Positions 52,667-63,109 of a stretch of 64,000 nt of DNA are shown in pieces (the stretch's first letter is position 1; each line of letters opens with the position of its first letter). Position numbers and translations under genes: made by a program. The notes beneath the pieces are model-generated. The model was not told where the DNA came from. It did no database searches and worked only from the letters and a program-made list of their open reading frames with translations. Source of the DNA: a virus; IMG/VR virus record IMGVR_UViG_3300047325_000170, positions 47,161-111,160 of that record; one strand, 5' to 3'.

Positions 52667-52783
52667 ACCTCCCCTCATCTTCCTTTAATGCCTTATAGGA
52701 TTGGAAGACGGGAAATCTGTATCTGGCTTTAGTCATAGTAGCTTCCTAGGGCTCAGAAAGCTAGAGCTGGCTTCAAGACAAAA

Positions 52784-52855
52784 CTTCAAGACAGGGATCA
52801 ACTTCAAGACAAGGATCGACTTCAAGACAAGGATCAGCTTCAAGACAAGGATCCC
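52784..52855. repeat. 18-bp iterons (four copies plus a partial)
   Basis: CTTCAAGACARGGATCRN starts at 52784, 52802, 52820 and 52838, exactly 18 bp apart, with a shortened copy at 52771. Only the unit's last two bases and one purine vary. Exact spacing on the same face of the helix fits a protein-binding array, such as an origin or a promoter control region. Confidence 0.8.
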
Positions 52856-53055
52856 TGAGATCAAGAACCAGAGCGAGCAAGAGCCGGCCCCCCTCCCCAG
52901 GTGCGACAAAAGTAGGAGGGCCGTAAGAGATCTCAAAAGTGAGAAATCTGTCAGGGGGTCCACGTCCTACGGACCCCTTGCGCCATGCGGGTTCCGAGCC
53001 CCCGGGGTCGGATCCGGGCGGAGTCTTCCGCACGGGACTAGTTCTGGTCACCCAG

Positions 53056-53071
53056 CCACGTTGCCAAGGGG
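53056..53071 (+). promoter_or_regulatory. Start-associated element copy 1
   Basis: CCACGTTGCCAAGGGG, variant form, 155 nt before the start at 53227. Confidence 0.45.
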
Positions 53072-53226
53072 CGGGGGCGTGGACGCCTCGGCTATCCATG
53101 CTGCCGTCTGACGCCTCGGTTACTGTCGCAACAACCTGCACCGCAGGGTACGCCACGTGTGCCAGGCGTCTTCCCTTTTTCCTCCTACTCTCACTTGCCT
53201 TCCGTCTCTTGATTGGAGATCTTATC

Positions 53227-53376
53227 GTGAACGCACTCTACTCGTTCTTCGACTCCGTCGCTCCCACCATCATCCGCCTCGGCTTCGGTACCGGGCTCGT
53301 CACCGTCATCTGGTACGCTGCTACCTACCTCTTCTCATCTATCGTACATAGTCTGGTCCATGCAGTGGGGGGCTAG
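53227..53376 (+). CDS. Small membrane protein (49 aa)
   Basis: GTG start with GGAG 8 nt upstream. The longer in-frame ORF to the left lacks a ribosome site, so I use this start. One hydrophobic helix, LGFGTGLVTVIWYAATYLF (about 18-36), and a short polar C-terminus. The stop codon lies in the loop of a terminator. No family is recognised; this is the first gene of the plus-strand block. Confidence 0.6.
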   Translation: MNALYSFFDSVAPTIIRLGFGTGLVTVIWYAATYLFSSIVHSLVHAVGG

Positions 53377-54251: not shown

Positions 54252-54285
54252 ACCCTCAGCAATCGCGCTGGGGGTTTTCTCTTTT
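54252..54285 (+). terminator. Rho-independent terminator
   Basis: CCCTCAGC (54253-54260) pairs with GCTGGGGG (54267-54274), one G-T pair, followed by TTTTCTCTTTT. Confidence 0.85.
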
Positions 54286-54300
54286 CACGCTGCGGAGAGG
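54286..54300 (+). promoter_or_regulatory. Start-associated element copy 4
   Basis: CACGCTGCGGAGAGG directly after the terminator T-tract, 20 nt before the start at 54321. Confidence 0.6.
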
Positions 54301-54655: not shown

Positions 54656-54850
54656 ATGATTCGTGATATGTCCGGCTATCGCCCGCCACGCAAGCTCTGC
54701 GTCGACATGACCGATGAGGAGTTTCGTGACTACGAAGACTGGGAAATCTGGCGTACCGCGGTCTACATACGACCACGTTATCAGCTCATTCCCTCGAGAC
54801 AAACCCCGACGGGTCGCATCCTCATGCTGGTGCACTCAAAGCCACGCTGA
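54656..54850 (+). CDS. Hypothetical small protein (64 aa)
   Basis: ATG with GGAGGTAATCAAC upstream. The same frame is open far upstream, but that part lies across other genes. Charged and aromatic (EEFRDYEDWEIWRTAVYIR), basic C-terminus. The last codons lie within the next repeat element (AAGCCACGCTGA), so gene end and element share sequence. Function unknown. Confidence 0.65.
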   Translation: MIRDMSGYRPPRKLCVDMTDEEFRDYEDWEIWRTAVYIRPRYQLIPSRQTPTGRILMLVHSKPR

Positions 54851-54857
54851 TGAGGGG
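54842..54857 (+). promoter_or_regulatory. Start-associated element copy 6
   Basis: CCACGCTGATGAGGGG, overlapping the stop codon of the 64-aa gene and 150 nt before the next start, with a structured leader between. Confidence 0.5.
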
Positions 54858-55066: not shown

Positions 55067-55102
55067 AAACCCACAACGCTGCGGCGTTGTGGGTTTTTCT
55101 TC
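55067..55102 (+). terminator. Rho-independent terminator
   Basis: Perfect 13-bp stem (55067-55079 with 55084-55096), loop TGCG, then TTCTT. Confidence 0.9.
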
Positions 55103-55104
55103 CC

Positions 55105-55120
55105 CCACGCTTGGAAGAGG
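55105..55120 (+). promoter_or_regulatory. Start-associated element copy 7
   Basis: CCACGCTTGGAAGAGG, 20 nt before the start at 55141. Confidence 0.6.
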
Positions 55121-55140: not shown

Positions 55141-55359
55141 ATGGAAGAACTCGACTGGCTTCTAGCATGGGAAGAGGCTTGGGAACCCTGCATCAGCTGC
55201 TATCGGAGAGCAGCTCTGCCCGACGTGACCGAACGTGAGCTCGTCGAGCTGGGTGCCATGTATGGCCCGGGCGGCGAGTACGACGGGCTCTACAGTGGCG
55301 GCCTTTGCCGTCTGTGCGAGGCAGGTGCCGAGCGTGGCCGTGACCCTAGCGAGAGCTAG
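55141..55359 (+). CDS. Small Cys4 protein sharing a duplicated motif (72 aa)
   Basis: ATG with GGAGGTGAACC upstream. Trp/Glu-rich N-terminus, EPCISCYRR (C-x2-C) and GLCRLCEAG (C-x2-C) as likely zinc ligands. Between them, AMYGPGGEYDGLY also occurs in the 143-aa protein at 56092, and 41 bp are identical. Its stop codon lies in a terminator stem. Function unknown. Confidence 0.65.
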   Translation: MEELDWLLAWEEAWEPCISCYRRAALPDVTERELVELGAMYGPGGEYDGLYSGGLCRLCEAGAERGRDPSES

Positions 55360-55393: not shown

Positions 55394-55409
55394 CCACGTT
55401 GTGAAGTGG
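55394..55409 (+). promoter_or_regulatory. Start-associated element copy 8
   Basis: CCACGTTGTGAAGTGG, close to the copy at 58113; it precedes only a doubtful 25-codon ORF. Confidence 0.55.
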
Positions 55410-55414
55410 AAGGG

Positions 55415-55492
55415 ATGCGGAAGCAAAAGGAGGCCGCCATACTCAAGGCGGACCGCTGCCCGGAAGTATCGTCGTATCGGAAGCGTAGGTGA
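55415..55492 (+). CDS. Possible 25-aa microprotein
   Basis: ATG right after GGAAGGG, so the spacing is poor. A better ribosome site (AAAGGAGG) lies 5 nt before an in-frame ATA, which would give a 17-aa product ending in PEVSSYRKRR. The stop TGA follows the left arm of an inverted repeat (55483-55489 with 55505-55511). Weak call, based on the cassette layout. Confidence 0.25.
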   Translation: MRKQKEAAILKADRCPEVSSYRKRR

Positions 55493-55742
55493 TTCTCGGT
55501 AAATCCTACGCATTGCCGACGGGACGAGTGACCGGTGACTGGTTGCATAAAACCCTATTCATACGATGCTTGTGAGCAACATAAGACATAACCCTGCACC
55601 CTCCCCGGCATGCGCCCCCGGTGAGACCCACGAGAGGGAAAGACATGAGGTTGCAGGCGGTTGGGTATCGTATGGCTTCCACTCTCCCCACAATGCTCCG
55701 GCATTGTGGGGTTTTCTCAACTTTCTTCATAGGAGAGCTACC
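55493..55742 (+). other. Region without a clear gene, ending in a terminator
   Basis: No ORF with both a ribosome site and its own space. The long in-frame extension of the next gene starts at 55566 without a ribosome site. The segment contains the right arm of the repeat at 55505, and the terminator at 55686. It could be a leader RNA or a decayed cassette. Confidence 0.45.
55686..55717 (+). terminator. Rho-independent terminator
   Basis: CCCCACAATGC / GCATTGTGGGG (55686-55696 and 55701-55711), loop TCCG, then TTTTCTC. No clear gene precedes it. Confidence 0.9.
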
Positions 55743-55994: not shown

Positions 55995-56019
55995 CTCTAT
56001 GAGCCTAAGTTAGATGTAG

Positions 56020-56035
56020 CCACGCTCCCAAGGGG
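56020..56035 (+). promoter_or_regulatory. Start-associated element copy 9
   Basis: CCACGCTCCCAAGGGG, 56 nt before the start at 56092. Confidence 0.55.
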
Positions 56036-56091
56036 ATGCGAGGTGAAGCCTATCTTGGGCTCAGCTTTTTCGCTTTAACCTGGAGGTTAAC

Positions 56092-56523
56092 ATGGCCACA
56101 CAAGTCGATTTCACGCCAATCTTCGAATCCCGCGAGTACAAGCTCGCTCTCGAGCGTGCCGAGAAGCCCGCTCAGTTCCCCTATCGCGTACGCAAGGCGG
56201 CGTACCAGCGCAAGACCTACACGAAGTGGGATGCCGCTATCGACCGCCTACGCGAGGCGTACACCACCAAGCTGCAAGGCGAGTACACGCGCCTTCGTCT
56301 CAAGGAGGCGAAAACCGAGCTGGAAGGCCAGCTCAGCCTGCTCGAGGATGACGGGTTCGCGCCTGAACCCGATCCGGATCAGGCCTACGAGCGCTGGCTC
56401 GAGCGCGGTGACCACGAGACCGAACGTGACCTCGCCGAGCACGATGCCATGTATGGCCCGGGCGGCGAGTACGACGGGCTCTACAACCGCTGCTCGCAGC
56501 CCGACGACGAGCTGCCCTTCTAG
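56092..56523 (+). CDS. Helical protein sharing the duplicated motif (143 aa)
   Basis: ATG with GGAGGTTAAC upstream. Basic N-terminal half (YRVRKAAYQRKTYTKW), a helical Leu/Glu-rich stretch (LRLKEAKTELEGQLSLLEDD), and the C-terminal TERDLAEHDAMYGPGGEYDG block shared with the 72-aa protein. The DNA identity over 41 bp points to recent duplication or conversion of the block. Function unknown. Confidence 0.7.
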   Translation: MATQVDFTPIFESREYKLALERAEKPAQFPYRVRKAAYQRKTYTKWDAAIDRLREAYTTKLQGEYTRLRLKEAKTELEGQLSLLEDDGFAPEPDPDQAYERWLERGDHETERDLAEHDAMYGPGGEYDGLYNRCSQPDDELPF

Positions 56524-56597: not shown

Positions 56598-56612
56598 CCA
56601 CGCTTTAAGTGG
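56598..56612 (+). promoter_or_regulatory. Start-associated element copy 10
   Basis: CCACGCTTTAAGTGG, with a second half-like CCACGAACTTTT at 56583 just before it; 22 nt before the start at 56635. Confidence 0.65.
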
Positions 56613-56634: not shown

Positions 56635-56931
56635 ATGAAGCAAGTAGGCACCTTGGTCTTGCCCGATGGCGAGATGCTCCAGGTTTTCCAGACCCAGTAC
56701 ACCGATGGCCAAACCGCCATCGAGATCTTCGCGGCGGATGGCCCGTACGCACGCCTCAGCGTGAATATGGCGCCCGACTACGTCTGCCAAGACGGCGAGT
56801 TCGTTGTCAAGTCGTGGTCCGGGAACGAGGAGATCGTCGAGATCGCCGAGGCCTCGGGTCTCTTCGAGTACGCCGGGAAAGTCGCTGGCAACGGCTTGGT
56901 CTTCGGACCGGTGTGGAAACTCAAGGGCTAG
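56635..56931 (+). CDS. Small acidic beta-rich protein, possibly DUF4313-like (98 aa)
   Basis: ATG with GGAGGTAACGCAG upstream. The order LPDGEMLQVF, QYTDGQTAIEI, YARLSVNMAP, GEFVVKSWSGNEEI and VFGPVWKLKG resembles small phage and plasmid proteins of the DUF4313 type, which have no known function. The likeness is from memory and uncertain. Strong terminator downstream. Confidence 0.65.
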   Translation: MKQVGTLVLPDGEMLQVFQTQYTDGQTAIEIFAADGPYARLSVNMAPDYVCQDGEFVVKSWSGNEEIVEIAEASGLFEYAGKVAGNGLVFGPVWKLKG

Positions 56932-56937
56932 AGGCCC

Positions 56938-56976
56938 GCCCCCGACCCAGCTTGATGCTGGGTCGGGGGCTTCTCA
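56938..56976 (+). terminator. Rho-independent terminator
   Basis: Perfect 14-bp stem (56938-56951 with 56957-56970), then TTCTC. Confidence 0.85.
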
Positions 56977-56999: not shown

Positions 57000-57185
57000 A
57001 TGAAAACTAAAGCCATTTACAAGTTCGCAACCGGCGACGTAATTCCCGAAGGCGCTGTCTATCTGAATACCGTCGTCCAAACCCGCGCACGGGGCGTTCG
57101 AGGGAGGAATCAGCCAGAAGCGGCGGGCCCGTGGTCGCCTTGCTGGCTGGTCTGGCATTACTTTCTCGTTGAGGTTGACGCGTGA
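57000..57185 (+). CDS. Hypothetical small protein (61 aa)
   Basis: ATG with AAAGGA 7 nt upstream; no repeat element before it. Short beta-like N-terminus (AIYKFATGDVIPEGAVYL), a basic loop, and a Trp/aromatic C-terminus (CWLVWHYFLVEVDA). The stop overlaps the next start (GTGA), so the two are translationally coupled. Confidence 0.6.
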   Translation: MKTKAIYKFATGDVIPEGAVYLNTVVQTRARGVRGRNQPEAAGPWSPCWLVWHYFLVEVDA

Positions 57186-57349
57186 ATAGCGAGCTTTACA
57201 AACTGTGGCAAGAGATCGGTGCTCTACGGGAACGCGTTCAAGAACTCGAGGCGTACGCCGAAGAACTCGACGCGGCCAACGTGGCCTTAAGCAAGCAGGT
57301 GGAGATCTTGACGAGCACTAGAGGGTCTTCACGCTTTCCACGCTCATAG
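57182..57349 (+). CDS. Coiled-coil mini-protein (55 aa)
   Basis: GTG overlapping the previous TGA. Heptad pattern over most of its length: LYKLWQEIGALRERVQELEA, then EELDAANVALSKQVEIL. The last residues and TAG stop are encoded inside the repeat element at 57338. This is a small leucine-zipper-like protein, perhaps an inhibitor or adaptor that pairs with a host coiled coil (inference). Confidence 0.6.
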   Translation: MNSELYKLWQEIGALRERVQELEAYAEELDAANVALSKQVEILTSTRGSSRFPRS

Positions 57350-57352
57350 TGG
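57338..57352 (+). promoter_or_regulatory. Start-associated element copy 11
   Basis: CCACGCTCATAGTGG, contains the stop codon of the 55-aa coiled-coil gene; followed by a terminator and not by a gene. Confidence 0.6.
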
Positions 57353-57367
57353 AAGGGCCGCGCTGGC

Positions 57368-57396
57368 ACCCCCGCGTTAGCGGGGGTTTCCTCTTT
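57368..57396 (+). terminator. Rho-independent terminator in a cassette without a gene
   Basis: ACCCCCGC, loop GTTA, GCGGGGGT (57368-57387), then TTCCTCTTT. It lies between two element copies. Confidence 0.85.
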
Positions 57397-57411
57397 CCAC
57401 GCTCGTAGTGG
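57397..57411 (+). promoter_or_regulatory. Start-associated element copy 12
   Basis: CCACGCTCGTAGTGG, directly after the terminator, 20 nt before the start at 57432; differs from copy 11 by one base. Confidence 0.65.
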
Positions 57412-57431: not shown

Positions 57432-57599
57432 ATGAACTCATGCCACGTGTGCAACAAGGCTCTCACGCACGCAGAAGCCATCGATGAGGACCTCAGCCTC
57501 ATCATTCAGGAACCTATCTGGATGCGGGTCAGCATCTGTGCAGCATGTGCTGCATCAATGGATGCTGCCAGGAACGCCGACGTCTTCAGCCCCAACTAA
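57432..57599 (+). CDS. Cys4 zinc-ribbon mini-protein (55 aa)
   Basis: ATG with GGAGGTGACCT, the same upstream sequence as the 61-aa Cys4 gene at 54321. SCHVCNK (about 3-9) and SICAACAAS (about 34-42) give two C-x2-C pairs. Similar architecture to the 61-aa protein but little sequence identity. Possibly a host-factor-binding mini-protein. Confidence 0.65.
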   Translation: MNSCHVCNKALTHAEAIDEDLSLIIQEPIWMRVSICAACAASMDAARNADVFSPN

Positions 57600-57603
57600 C
57601 CTT

Positions 57604-57632
57604 AGCCCCGCTTATGCGGGGCTTCTCTCTTG
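57604..57632 (+). terminator. Rho-independent terminator
   Basis: AGCCCCGC, loop TTAT, GCGGGGCT (57604-57623), then TCTCTCTT. Confidence 0.85.
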
Positions 57633-57647
57633 CCACGCTGCGAGAGG
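57633..57647 (+). promoter_or_regulatory. Start-associated element copy 13
   Basis: CCACGCTGCGAGAGG, 20 nt before the start at 57668. Confidence 0.6.
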
Positions 57648-57667
57648 CTAAGAATTGGAGGTGAAAG

Positions 57668-58087
57668 ATGGCTATTACCAGCTTTAGTGGCCCGTGGGCC
57701 TGCCTATCGAACTTCTGGCCAGTCATGATCTGGGTCGAAGACGAACTCTACCCGAGCGCCGAGCATGCCTTTCAGGCAATGAAGACGCTCAACTCTGCCG
57801 AACGTCGCTCTATCGCGCTGGCCGCCACTCCCGGCCAAGCGAAGAAGGCCGGGCGCGCGCTATCCCTGCGAGAAGACTGGGAGCGCGTCAAGGATGAGCA
57901 GATGCTGAAGATCCTACGCGTCAAGTTCGCCGTCGCCCCTCTCGCCGAGAAGCTGCTCGAGACGGGCGACCAGGAACTCGTCGAAGGGAACTGGTGGGGT
58001 GATACCTACTGGGGCGTCTGTAAGGGCACCGGGCAGAATAAGCTCGGCAAGAGTCTGATGACCGTGCGAGCTGAGCTTAAGGGGTAG
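57668..58087 (+). CDS. NADAR/YbiA-type N-glycosidase (139 aa)
   Basis: ATG with GGAGGTGAAAG upstream. The whole protein follows the YbiA/NADAR pattern: GPWACLSNFWP, YPSAEHAFQAMK, TPGQAKKAGR, DWERVKDEQM, LRVKF, LLETGDQELVEGN, WWGDTYWGVC and GQNKLGKSLM. NADAR enzymes cleave N-glycosidic bonds; members remove ADP-ribose from guanine in DNA (the antitoxin side of a DarT system) or hydrolyse riboflavin intermediates. In a phage it could counter a host ADP-ribosylating defence or act in NAD-linked metabolism (inference). Stop codon inside a terminator. Confidence 0.85.
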   Translation: MAITSFSGPWACLSNFWPVMIWVEDELYPSAEHAFQAMKTLNSAERRSIALAATPGQAKKAGRALSLREDWERVKDEQMLKILRVKFAVAPLAEKLLETGDQELVEGNWWGDTYWGVCKGTGQNKLGKSLMTVRAELKG

Positions 58088-58111
58088 GCGTAAGCCTACC
58101 CCTTCTCTCTT
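58079..58111 (+). terminator. Rho-independent terminator overlapping a stop codon
   Basis: AAGGGGTAGGC, loop GTAA, GCCTACCCCTT (58079-58104), then CTCTCTT. The stem's left arm encodes the last two codons and the TAG. Confidence 0.9.
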
Positions 58112-58112
58112 G

Positions 58113-58128
58113 CCACGCTGTGAAGTGG
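58113..58128 (+). promoter_or_regulatory. Start-associated element copy 14
   Basis: CCACGCTGTGAAGTGG, 25 nt before the start at 58154. Confidence 0.65.
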
Positions 58129-58153: not shown

Positions 58154-58633
58154 ATGAGAAAGACCATCTTCCTCGCACTCAAGTGGACCCAAGACACAGG
58201 TTCAGCTTTCGCTGTCCAAGAACTAGCTGCTGGCGCCCCCTTCGGTCTCGAGGGTTGGGTTGTCCTCTCTTGGTGGTCGACGTACCACCAAGCAGAACAA
58301 GCCAGGTCGCTGTACGAAACCCACTATCTCCTTCACGGAGATGAGGACGACAGCTACATCGGCGAAGCCGTCGAGTACATGCCAGACAATGCCGATCATC
58401 CGCTCAACCTGCTCTCTTGGTTCATCAAGAACTGTCTCACGGATCTGGCTCAGAACACCAGTCCCCTCGTCATCACCCCGGTCAACGACGAGTACACGTC
58501 GCTCGAGGTTCACAACGAGCACGCGCATACCCGCTTGGGCTGCCTTACTCCCAGCATGCGGCGTGCCGTCTACCTGATGGTGGCAAAGTATAACCTGGAC
58601 CTCCGCCGATTTGCAGCAGAAGTGGGGATGTGA
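58154..58633 (+). CDS. Hypothetical protein (159 aa)
   Basis: I use the ATG at 58154 (GGAGGT about 10 nt upstream) rather than a TTG at 58136 that lies within the ribosome site. Trp-rich N-terminus (LEGWVVLSWWSTYHQAEQA), an acidic middle (GDEDDSYIGEAVEYMPDN), and a C-terminal helix with RRAVYLMVAKYNLDLRRFA. Soluble-looking. No family is recognised. Confidence 0.7.
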   Translation: MRKTIFLALKWTQDTGSAFAVQELAAGAPFGLEGWVVLSWWSTYHQAEQARSLYETHYLLHGDEDDSYIGEAVEYMPDNADHPLNLLSWFIKNCLTDLAQNTSPLVITPVNDEYTSLEVHNEHAHTRLGCLTPSMRRAVYLMVAKYNLDLRRFAAEVGM

Positions 58634-58645
58634 GGTGGCATAGAT

Positions 58646-58659
58646 CCACGCTTGGGAGG
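58646..58659 (+). promoter_or_regulatory. Start-associated element copy 15
   Basis: CCACGCTTGGGAGG, 9 nt before a possible GTG start at 58669. Confidence 0.5.
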
Positions 58660-58668
58660 GGGAGTGAC

Positions 58669-58737
58669 GTGAGGATCTGTGCGTCCGAAGCTCAGAACCC
58701 AAACTCCCTGTGTAAGCAGGAGCATGCCCGTTGGTGA
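58669..58737 (+). CDS. Possible 22-aa microprotein
   Basis: GTG with GGGGGAG 4-5 nt upstream. The product has two Cys and one His (MRICASEAQNPNS, then LCKQEHARW). The TGA stop lies at the foot of the terminator stem, as in neighbouring cassettes. The alternative is a small non-coding transcript. Confidence 0.35.
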   Translation: MRICASEAQNPNSLCKQEHARW

Positions 58738-58772
58738 GTTGTTCATTCAACCACCAACGGGTCTTTCTTTTC
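58727..58772 (+). terminator. Rho-independent terminator
   Basis: CCCGTTGGTG (58727-58736) pairs with CACCAACGGG (58752-58761), with an inner GTTG/CAAC pairing, then TCTTTCTTTT. Confidence 0.85.
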
Positions 58773-58842: not shown

Positions 58843-58857
58843 CCACGCTAGGAGTGG
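58843..58857 (+). promoter_or_regulatory. Start-associated element copy 16
   Basis: CCACGCTAGGAGTGG, 47 nt before the start at 58905. Between them AGAGGCATTTGCCTCACA can form a small AGGC/GCCT hairpin. Confidence 0.65.
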
Positions 58858-58904: not shown

Positions 58905-59270
58905 ATGGCAGACAACACCCAAGCGGATCGTAAGCCAACCGAACTCGACGAGGCCCTCGCGGCCGTTCCCGTCGGTGGTATCGCGATCTACAACCTGCGT
59001 CCGCAAGACGCGAAGTCGCTGAAAGCCCGTTTCACCGTCCTCTTCGGCGGTCTCGGCGCAGTCATCGGCTGCTCGTACTTCGTCGGCCAGAATGGCCCGT
59101 ACGTCCAGCATTCCGCCAAGACGGACCGTATCGTCAACGGCAAGCCGGACTACATCACCACGGCGAAGTTCACGCCCGAGGTGCAGGCCAAGATCACCAA
59201 CGCGGTGGGCAACATGCTCGCCAAGTTGGAACCGCCTACCAAGGCGAAACCGACCGCCGAACTGGTCTAA
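58905..59270 (+). CDS. SpoVG-like small protein (121 aa)
   Basis: ATG with AAGGAG 8 nt upstream; a GTG at 58854 lies inside the repeat element. The central order IAIYNLRPQDAKSLKARFTV, GAVIGCSYFVGQNGPYVQHS, DYITTAKFTPEVQAKI resembles SpoVG (strand-helix, G-x-NG-x-x-V, then a helix), a nucleic-acid-binding fold also seen in phages. The C-terminus is Lys/Pro-rich. The relationship needs a profile search; a DNA- or RNA-binding role is inferred. Confidence 0.6.
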   Translation: MADNTQADRKPTELDEALAAVPVGGIAIYNLRPQDAKSLKARFTVLFGGLGAVIGCSYFVGQNGPYVQHSAKTDRIVNGKPDYITTAKFTPEVQAKITNAVGNMLAKLEPPTKAKPTAELV

Positions 59271-61536: not shown

Positions 61537-62235
61537 ATGCCCAGAACGGCAAAACCCACCGATATCGATCTCAAAGCCGCCGCCAAGAAAGCCATCGCAG
61601 AAGCGACCTCCGGCTCCCACGATCTCACGATCACGATCCCCGAGATCGAGAAGCGCAAGGTCGTCATCCGCGTCGTCGGCGACACCCCGCTCATCACCCA
61701 TTGCTGGTCCGAGAAGGCCAAAGAGATGATGCGGATCAAGCAGACCAAGGGTGCGGCCCTGGCAAAGTCCGCCAAGAACGCAGCCGAAGACGTCGATGGA
61801 GCCACCTACTGGCTCGACAAGGAGAAAGGGCACGTCGGCTTCCCGGCCATTGCATTCAAAGCATCGATGGTTGATGCGGCGGTTGCCCTGGGCGGCAAGA
61901 AGACCGAAACGCGCCGAGCCTTTCGCATCGTCGGCATTCCCACCGTCCAGTACGGTGAGCTCGTGAAGATCGAGTACCAAGAGATGGTCCAGCGCGAAGA
62001 CATGGTGCGCGTTGGCATGGGCACGGCCGATCTTCGCTACCGTCCCGAATTCCGTGGCTGGCACGCCGACGTCACCTTCATCTACGACGCACGCCAGATC
62101 AGTCCGGCACAAATCATCTCCCTGCTCAACCAGGCCGGCTTCTCAACGGGCATCGGTGAGTGGCGGCCCGAACGGGATGGATCCTACGGGATGTTCTCGG
62201 CCACCGAAATCATCGGAGACATCACCCCACAATGA
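61537..62235 (+). CDS. Phage protein of a recurrent unknown family (232 aa)
   Basis: ATG with AAGGAG 5 nt upstream. Ordered segments VVGDTPLITHCWSEKAKEMM, GFPAIAFKASMVDAA, VRVGMGTADLRYRPEFRGW, AQIISLLNQAGFSTGIGEWR and a YGMF end. I recall similar sequences in unrelated tailed phages, usually followed by the same type of partner as here; a fold like Cas7/RAMP has been suggested to me only by the pattern, so I do not assign it. Stop/start ATGA coupling with the next gene supports joint function. Confidence 0.65.
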   Translation: MPRTAKPTDIDLKAAAKKAIAEATSGSHDLTITIPEIEKRKVVIRVVGDTPLITHCWSEKAKEMMRIKQTKGAALAKSAKNAAEDVDGATYWLDKEKGHVGFPAIAFKASMVDAAVALGGKKTETRRAFRIVGIPTVQYGELVKIEYQEMVQREDMVRVGMGTADLRYRPEFRGWHADVTFIYDARQISPAQIISLLNQAGFSTGIGEWRPERDGSYGMFSATEIIGDITPQ

Positions 62236-62738: not shown

Positions 62739-62744
62739 ATCCCG

Positions 62745-63090
62745 GCAGGCTCGGCGTGGCGGGGCACGTCCGGGCGCGGTTAGGCCCGGCACGGCACGGC
62801 AGGCGTGGCTTGGCCCGGCAGGTCCAGGCCTGGCCTGGCTTGGCAGGTAAGGCAAGGCCCGGTGCGGCCCGGCGTGGCACGGCAACGCAAGGACCGGCAA
62901 GGCAGGCTTGGCAAGTCGGGGCGCGGTGCTGCTGGGCATGGCCAGGTCCCGCTTGGCACGGCAGGCAGGGTGTGTCCAGGCGAGGCGGGGCTTGGCAAGG
63001 CTTGGCAAGATGCGGCGTGGCAGGCGGGGCAGGCAAGGCAGGTAGGGCTTGGCTGGGCAAGGCCGGGCCCGGCGTGGCAGGCAGGGCAAA
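62745..63090. repeat. Degenerate GGCNN pentamer tract (about 345 bp)
   Basis: About 69 consecutive 5-bp units, most of the form GGC plus two variable bases (GGCAC, GGCAG, GGCTT, GGCGT, GGCCC), with occasional one-base phase shifts. TAA/TAG are almost absent, so long ORFs run through it in several frames on both strands; these are artefacts. It fills the space between the 168-aa gene and the next element. No known repeat class is recognised. Confidence 0.85.
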
Positions 63091-63109
63091 CATAATCCCG
63101 TTCCGAGAT

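What the first reader, a model, noticed from the sequence alone, without database searches (positions are those of the whole stretch)
57338..57411. A cassette with element and terminator but no gene
Two nearly identical elements (one base different) are separated by 44 bp containing only a strong terminator. If each element starts a transcript, this one makes an RNA of about 40 nt. It is either a tiny RNA or the scar of a lost gene, and shows the cassette unit is element plus terminator rather than gene-specific.
Basis: seen in the sequence. Interest (0 to 1): 0.7.

Follow-up and report, generated by a model that had tools for sequence, protein, structure and literature searches.

The report
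Extra phage promoter-like element before terminator
In a large, poorly known phage, a short promoter-like DNA signal that normally stands in front of each small gene also occurs once at the very end of a gene, just before that gene's transcription stop, so it could make at most an RNA of about 40 letters; it is probably a spare or misplaced copy, but together with a few other gene-less copies it suggests that the signal starts transcription rather than translation.

Summary
The sequence observation is exact: two 15-bp elements (57338-57352, 57397-57411) differ by one base and are separated by 44 bp holding one strong terminator and no start codon. The element is real: 13 strong copies, all + strand, all at 53.0-58.9 kb, with only a few weaker copies in the same arm. 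The 57368-57387 terminator is best read as that unit's own, and terminator, 8-9 nt, element, 14 nt, GGAGG, gene is the standard linker, seen five times here. So this is no empty cassette but a normal linker plus one extra element at the end of the upstream gene. The extra copy is intact over its conserved length (32.9 bits) and lacks only the ribosome-binding site. It belongs to a class of seven strong SD-less copies, of which two others also lead to no convincing gene. Best explanation: a phage-specific promoter motif whose extra copy yields, if active, a ~40-nt terminator RNA with no shown function. No relative carries the element, so conservation cannot be tested.

The parts
57001..57185 (+). 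first gene of the upstream pair (61 aa, ATG, SD AGAAAGGA); follows terminator 56937-56975 with no element of its own
57182..57349 (+). second gene of the upstream pair (55 aa, GTG start overlapping the previous stop as GTGA, coiled-coil-like); its TAG stop (57347-57349) lies inside element 10
   Evidence: only this frame is open; codon-position GC 0.64/0.34/0.66, as in neighbouring genes; no family match at E<=0.001
57338..57352 (+). element 10, CCACGCTCATAGTGG; conserved downstream block continues to about 57363 (AGTGGAAGGGCCGCGC); no ribosome-binding site
57368..57387 (+). intrinsic terminator ACCCCCGCGTTAGCGGGGGT + TTTCCTCTTT; terminator of the 57001-57349 pair and first part of the linker to gene 57432
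57397..57411 (+). element 11, CCACGCTCGTAGTGG, 9 nt after the terminator stem; GGAGG 14 nt after the A of its AGTGG
57432..57599 (+). gene of element 11 (55 aa, two CxxC motifs, possible zinc ribbon), followed by terminator 57604-57623 and the next linker
54285..54300 (+). SD-linked element (TCACGCTGCGGAGAGG) after terminator 54252-54275
55105..55120 (+). SD-linked element after terminator 55067-55096
56598..56612 (+). SD-linked element before gene 56635-56931
57633..57647 (+). SD-linked element after terminator 57604-57623, before the NADAR gene 57668-58087
58113..58128 (+). SD-linked element after terminator 58079-58104, before gene 58154-58633
53056..53071 (+). SD-less element; about 160-nt structured leader (z -3.8) before gene 53227-53376
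54842..54857 (+). SD-less element overlapping the stop codon of the gene that ends at 54850 (same situation as 57338); leads to a 17-aa ORF (ATG 55008) and terminator 55067-55096
55394..55409 (+). SD-less element followed by about 290 nt without a convincing gene, up to terminator 55686-55711
56020..56035 (+). SD-less element inside the loop of a terminator-like hairpin (outer stem 56000-56013 with 56050-56063, then AGCTTTTTCG), before gene 56092-56523
   Evidence: z -4.3
58646..58661 (+). SD-less element 12 nt after the stop of gene 58154-58633; about 65 nt with at most a weak 22-codon GTG ORF, then terminator 58727-58761
58843..58857 (+). SD-less element; about 50-nt leader before gene 58905-59270

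Best explanation
The element (CCACGCT N3-4 AGNGGRWGNG N3 YG) is a phage-specific promoter, read by a polymerase or polymerase partner that this incomplete contig does not show. It fires most small genes of the arm separately. The ordinary linker between genes is terminator, 8-9 nt, element, 14 nt, GGAGG, start codon. At 57338-57411 there is one ordinary linker (terminator 57368-57387 + element 57397 + SD + gene 57432) plus one extra SD-less element that lies across the stop codon of the upstream gene 57182-57349. If this extra copy fires, transcription starts near its AGTGG and ends at the upstream gene's own terminator: an RNA of about 40 nt that is almost only the terminator hairpin. The most likely status is a spare or displaced copy (a by-product of recombination among near-identical elements) with no dedicated product. 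Shown here: anatomy, copy number, strand, spacing, lack of the SD alone. Inferred: that the element is a promoter, where transcription starts, that the RNA exists, and how the copy arose.
For: 13 strong copies, one strand, confined to 53.0-58.9 kb. Five copies sit 8-9 nt after a terminator stem, and eight copies have GGAGG exactly 14 nt after the A of AGNGG, so a start point upstream of the SD must lie inside or just at the element. No excess of sigma-70-type promoters (3 found, 4.4 expected). Conservation reaches the YG at +13/+14 even in SD-less copies, 57338 included. One copy lies in the loop of a terminator-like hairpin (56020, z -4.3): a transcript that starts at the element lacks the 5' arm and escapes, while read-through from upstream would stop. 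The CCAC/GTGG pairing is not maintained (A invariant in 13/13, T opposite it in only 6/13, no compensating change), against an RNA hairpin. GTGA coupling and codon-position GC support gene 57182-57349, which makes the terminator that of an ordinary gene pair. In a distantly related phage, 0305phi8-36, 14 copies of a 21-bp phage-specific promoter candidate were reported, in an arm with small monocistronic genes (PMC2147016).
Against: No single-subunit RNA polymerase (PF00940; found in the T7 control) and no RNAi-type polymerase (PF05183) was found in the 111-kb contig or in three distant relatives, though the contig is probably only part of the genome. The element is G+C-rich, with no obvious AT-rich melting region. 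No transcription data exist. Genes 55743 and 57001 follow a terminator without any element, so not every gene has one.
Confidence: 0.55

Rival explanations
1. The extra element and other SD-less copies are dedicated promoters of small non-coding RNAs: 57338 (~40 nt), 58646 (~110 nt), 55394 (~300 nt), perhaps 54842 (~240 nt with a 17-aa ORF).
For: Seven of 13 strong copies lack the SD, yet keep the whole conserved block. Three lead to a terminator without a convincing gene. The 57338 copy is undegraded (32.9 bits) although it overlaps a coding end.
Against: Only the 53056 leader and the 56020 hairpin fold significantly better than shuffles (z -3.8, -4.3); 55394 (-1.5), 54842 (-0.9), 58646 (-1.5) and the 57350-57392 RNA (-1.8) do not. 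No Rfam match. A 40-nt RNA that is mostly terminator hairpin has little room for a target site.
Confidence: 0.2
2. Scar of a lost gene: element 10 once had its own SD and gene before the terminator, and the gene was deleted.
For: The order element-terminator-element is what a clean gene deletion would leave; other cassettes have the full order.
Against: The sequence after element 10 is not a truncated SD copy: it keeps the SD-less type (AGTGGAAGGGCCGCGC, close to 58843 AGTGGGAGGGTCGTGC), and the terminator follows the stop of 57182-57349 by 18 nt, a normal place for that gene's own terminator.
Confidence: 0.12
3. Binding site of a phage regulator acting on initiation or elongation (like the stoperators of cluster A mycobacteriophages), not itself a promoter.
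For: Asymmetric, one orientation with transcription, in intergenic spaces and at gene ends, as described for L5 stoperators (PMC9283540).
Against: Position directly after terminators and at a fixed distance before SDs, with no other promoter candidate in these gaps.
Confidence: 0.1
4. Translation-linked element (like Start-Associated Sequences of cluster K mycobacteriophages).
For: In eight copies GGAGG lies exactly 14 nt downstream.
Against: Seven of the 13 strong copies have no SD at that place, 57338 included.
Confidence: 0.03

Closest known systems
21-bp phage-specific promoter candidates of Bacillus phage 0305phi8-36 (PMC2147016)
   Same: 14 copies in the non-structural arm, which also has a run of small, apparently monocistronic genes; no sigma factor recognised there; distantly related terminase lineage (through ME3)
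   Different: The motif is given only as a figure and the record is not in the collection, so the sequences could not be compared; no RNAi-type polymerase found in this contig
T7-type single-subunit RNA polymerase promoters
   Same: One compact conserved block that would span the start and end in a G-rich initial transcribed sequence, repeated before genes
   Different: 3 or 4 bp gap between the two halves, no AT-rich stretch before the presumed start, no polymerase gene found
Start-Associated Sequences and extended SAS of cluster K mycobacteriophages (PMC3203893)
   Same: Repeated, mostly one orientation, in the non-structural arm, upstream of genes; extended SAS have two half-sites with a variable spacer
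   Different: SAS contains the SD-like core and nearly always abuts a start; here the SD lies outside the element and half of the copies have none
Stoperators of cluster A mycobacteriophages (PMC9283540)
   Same: Short asymmetric sites in one orientation, in intergenic spaces
   Different: 13-bp sites bound by the immunity repressor; here the sites are coupled at fixed distance to terminators and SDs, and no repressor is known
SPO1 host-takeover module (as cited in PMC2147016)
   Same: Run of tiny, separately transcribed genes in a large phage
   Different: Served by recognisable early promoters (general knowledge); none are recognisable here

Membership tests
Phage-specific dispersed promoter | many near-identical copies, one strand, before genes | tested here: met
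Phage-specific dispersed promoter | transcription starts at the element | not testable with these tools
   needs 5'-end mapping
Phage-specific dispersed promoter | cognate polymerase or sigma factor in the genome | tested here: inconclusive
   PF00940 and PF05183 absent from the 111-kb contig, which is probably incomplete; sigma factors not searched
0305phi8-36 21-bp promoter family | same sequence motif | not testable with these tools
   record not held
T7-type promoter | fixed spacing within the block | tested here: not met
   gap of 3 or 4 bp between the halves
Start-Associated Sequence (cluster K) | copy immediately upstream of a start codon | tested here: not met
   seven of 13 strong copies lack an SD and adjacent start
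Cluster A stoperator | bound by a repressor that blocks elongation | not testable with these tools
   no repressor identified; only position and orientation agree
Structured RNA hairpin in the leader | base pairing kept through compensatory change | tested here: not met
   A at position 3 invariant; its partner is T in only 6 of 13

The most novel reading that the evidence does not exclude
The phage uses one promoter motif in two forms: with a built-in SD for small genes, and without an SD for short, terminated, gene-less transcripts (57338, 58646, 55394), that is, a set of phage small RNAs made by minimal promoter-terminator pairs, one of them only about 40 nt long and nested at the end of a gene.
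Probability: 0.18. Interest if true: 0.55.

Novelty: new member of a known kind. Interest (0 to 1): 0.3.

Why it matters
The gene-less copies are the most useful test of what the element does: a translation signal would have no reason to be there, while a promoter or a protein-binding site would. The motif itself is new in sequence and would help to find the transcription machinery of a poorly known lineage of large phages. The single spot, taken alone, is ordinary.

Tried and rejected
Relatives by the NADAR gene (32 loci) were not followed up: they are at most 53% identical and no other gene of the array gave relatives. The 232-aa gene 61537-62235 gave 80 loci of many phages, too broad to show synteny. 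Pattern scan of IMG/VR: 23 contigs with one copy each, without the terminator-element-gene setting, read as chance. A stricter pattern in 84,980 bacterial and archaeal genomes: none. The terminase gives no relative in IMG/VR and at best 36% identity in named phages. The element is absent from Moorella MTATph1, Bacillus KLEB27-3 and Acinetobacter ME3; over-represented 10- and 12-mers in the first two show no comparable motif. RNA-hairpin reading rejected (no compensatory change). DNA similarity to known phages: none. Searches failed for limits or missing records; the last part failed and was redone. In one search the automatic SD finder mis-assigned 54285 and 58843; and reading by eye replace it there.

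Full report
Observation. The window is the right 64 kb of a 111,160-bp phage contig. Two elements, CCACGCTCATAGTGG (57338-57352) and CCACGCTCGTAGTGG (57397-57411), differ by one base; the 44 bp between them hold a single terminator and no usable start codon.

The element is not chance. A two-block weight matrix made from the copies finds 13 at 24.9-34.1 bits, all on the + strand between 53056 and 58843. The next matches are 63110 (17.2 bits, followed after about 60 bp by a gene with an SD) and 59700 (12.4 bits, GGAGG and ATG at the usual distances), both probably real; shuffled genomes reach 13.7 (the matrix was trained on the copies it finds, so the margin is somewhat flattering). Two more weak copies, 54616 and about 59399, also precede genes. 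None lies in the structural arm.

Anatomy. The element has a left half CCACGCT, a gap of 3 or 4 bp, and a right half AGNGGRWGNG N3 YG. Two classes appear. SD-linked copies (54285, 54616, 55105, 56598, 57397, 57633, 58113, 59700) have GGAGG exactly 14 nt after the A of AGNGG; in five of them the element starts 8-9 nt after a terminator stem. SD-less copies (53056, 54842, 55394, 56020, 57338, 58646, 58843, and the weaker 63110) keep the right half, including the YG, but have no SD there; they lead to a longer leader (53056, 56020, 58843, 63110), to a 17-codon ORF (54842), or to a terminator with no convincing gene (55394, 57338, 58646).

What stands at 57338. In fact gene 57001-57185 overlaps gene 57182-57349 by GTGA, and the TAG stop of the second gene is the TAG of CATAGTGG. 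The frame is the only open one and its codon-position GC resembles its neighbours. The same happens at 54842, where the stop of the gene ending at 54850 lies in the element. The terminator 57368-57387, 18 nt after the stop, is therefore the natural terminator of the gene pair. With element 57397, its SD and gene 57432 it forms the standard linker, 75% identical over 59 nt to the next linker at 57606-57664. What is left over is one extra SD-less element at the end of the upstream gene.

How it works. SDs at a fixed 14 nt downstream leave room for a transcription start only at or inside the element, and there is no sigma-70-type alternative. The copy at 56020 lies in the loop of a long terminator-like hairpin (z -4.3): RNA started at the element lacks the 5' arm, so the gene downstream could be expressed, while read-through from upstream would be stopped. 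This nesting fits an element that starts transcription. The hairpin potential CCAC/GTGG is not conserved, so the element more likely acts as DNA. Gene-less copies speak against a translation-only role. From this I infer a phage-specific promoter. The extra copy would give an RNA of about 40 nt. Whether it fires, and whether the RNA does anything, is not shown.

What reads it is unknown. T7-type (PF00940) and RNAi-type (PF05183) polymerases are not found in the contig; the T7 control was found, and Bacillus subtilis rang for PF05183. The contig breaks off in the non-structural arm, so the gene may be missing. By terminase the nearest named phages are Moorella MTATph1 (36%), Bacillus KLEB27-3 and Acinetobacter ME3, the last annotated as sharing homology with 0305phi8-36. 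That phage has a reported set of 14 phage-specific promoter candidates and an arm with small, apparently monocistronic genes (PMC2147016), the closest known parallel; the motifs could not be compared.

Verdict. Confirmed as sequence, partly supported as interpretation, of modest interest alone. The more interesting reading, a class of gene-less transcripts from SD-less copies, is not excluded but has little support from folding and none from relatives.

Noticed in passing
56000-56072: Promoter-like element 56020 lies in the loop of a long terminator-like hairpin followed by a T run; a nested design that would separate upstream from downstream transcripts.
   Followed up: partly
55394-55716: About 290 nt between an element and a strong terminator with no convincing gene; its ends can pair (GTGGAAG/CTTCCAC), but the whole does not fold better than shuffles.
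   Followed up: partly
53056-53230: Element followed by a 160-nt leader that folds significantly better than shuffles (z -3.8).
   Followed up: partly
62740-63095: About 350 bp of G+C-rich degenerate repeats (TTGGCAAGGC-like) between genes.
   Followed up: no
52765-52860: Tandem 18-bp repeats (ACTTCAAGACAAGGATCA-like).
   Followed up: no
55141-55359 and 56092-56523: Two small genes share a nearly identical stretch (AMYGPGGEYDGLY), 92% over 72 nt: partial gene duplication in the cassette array.
   Followed up: no
57668-58087: NADAR-domain protein (Pfam PF08719, E 1.8e-24) inside the cassette array; relatives in 32 other viral contigs.
   Followed up: no
57001 and 55743: Genes that follow a terminator directly without any element; how they are transcribed is unclear.
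   Followed up: no
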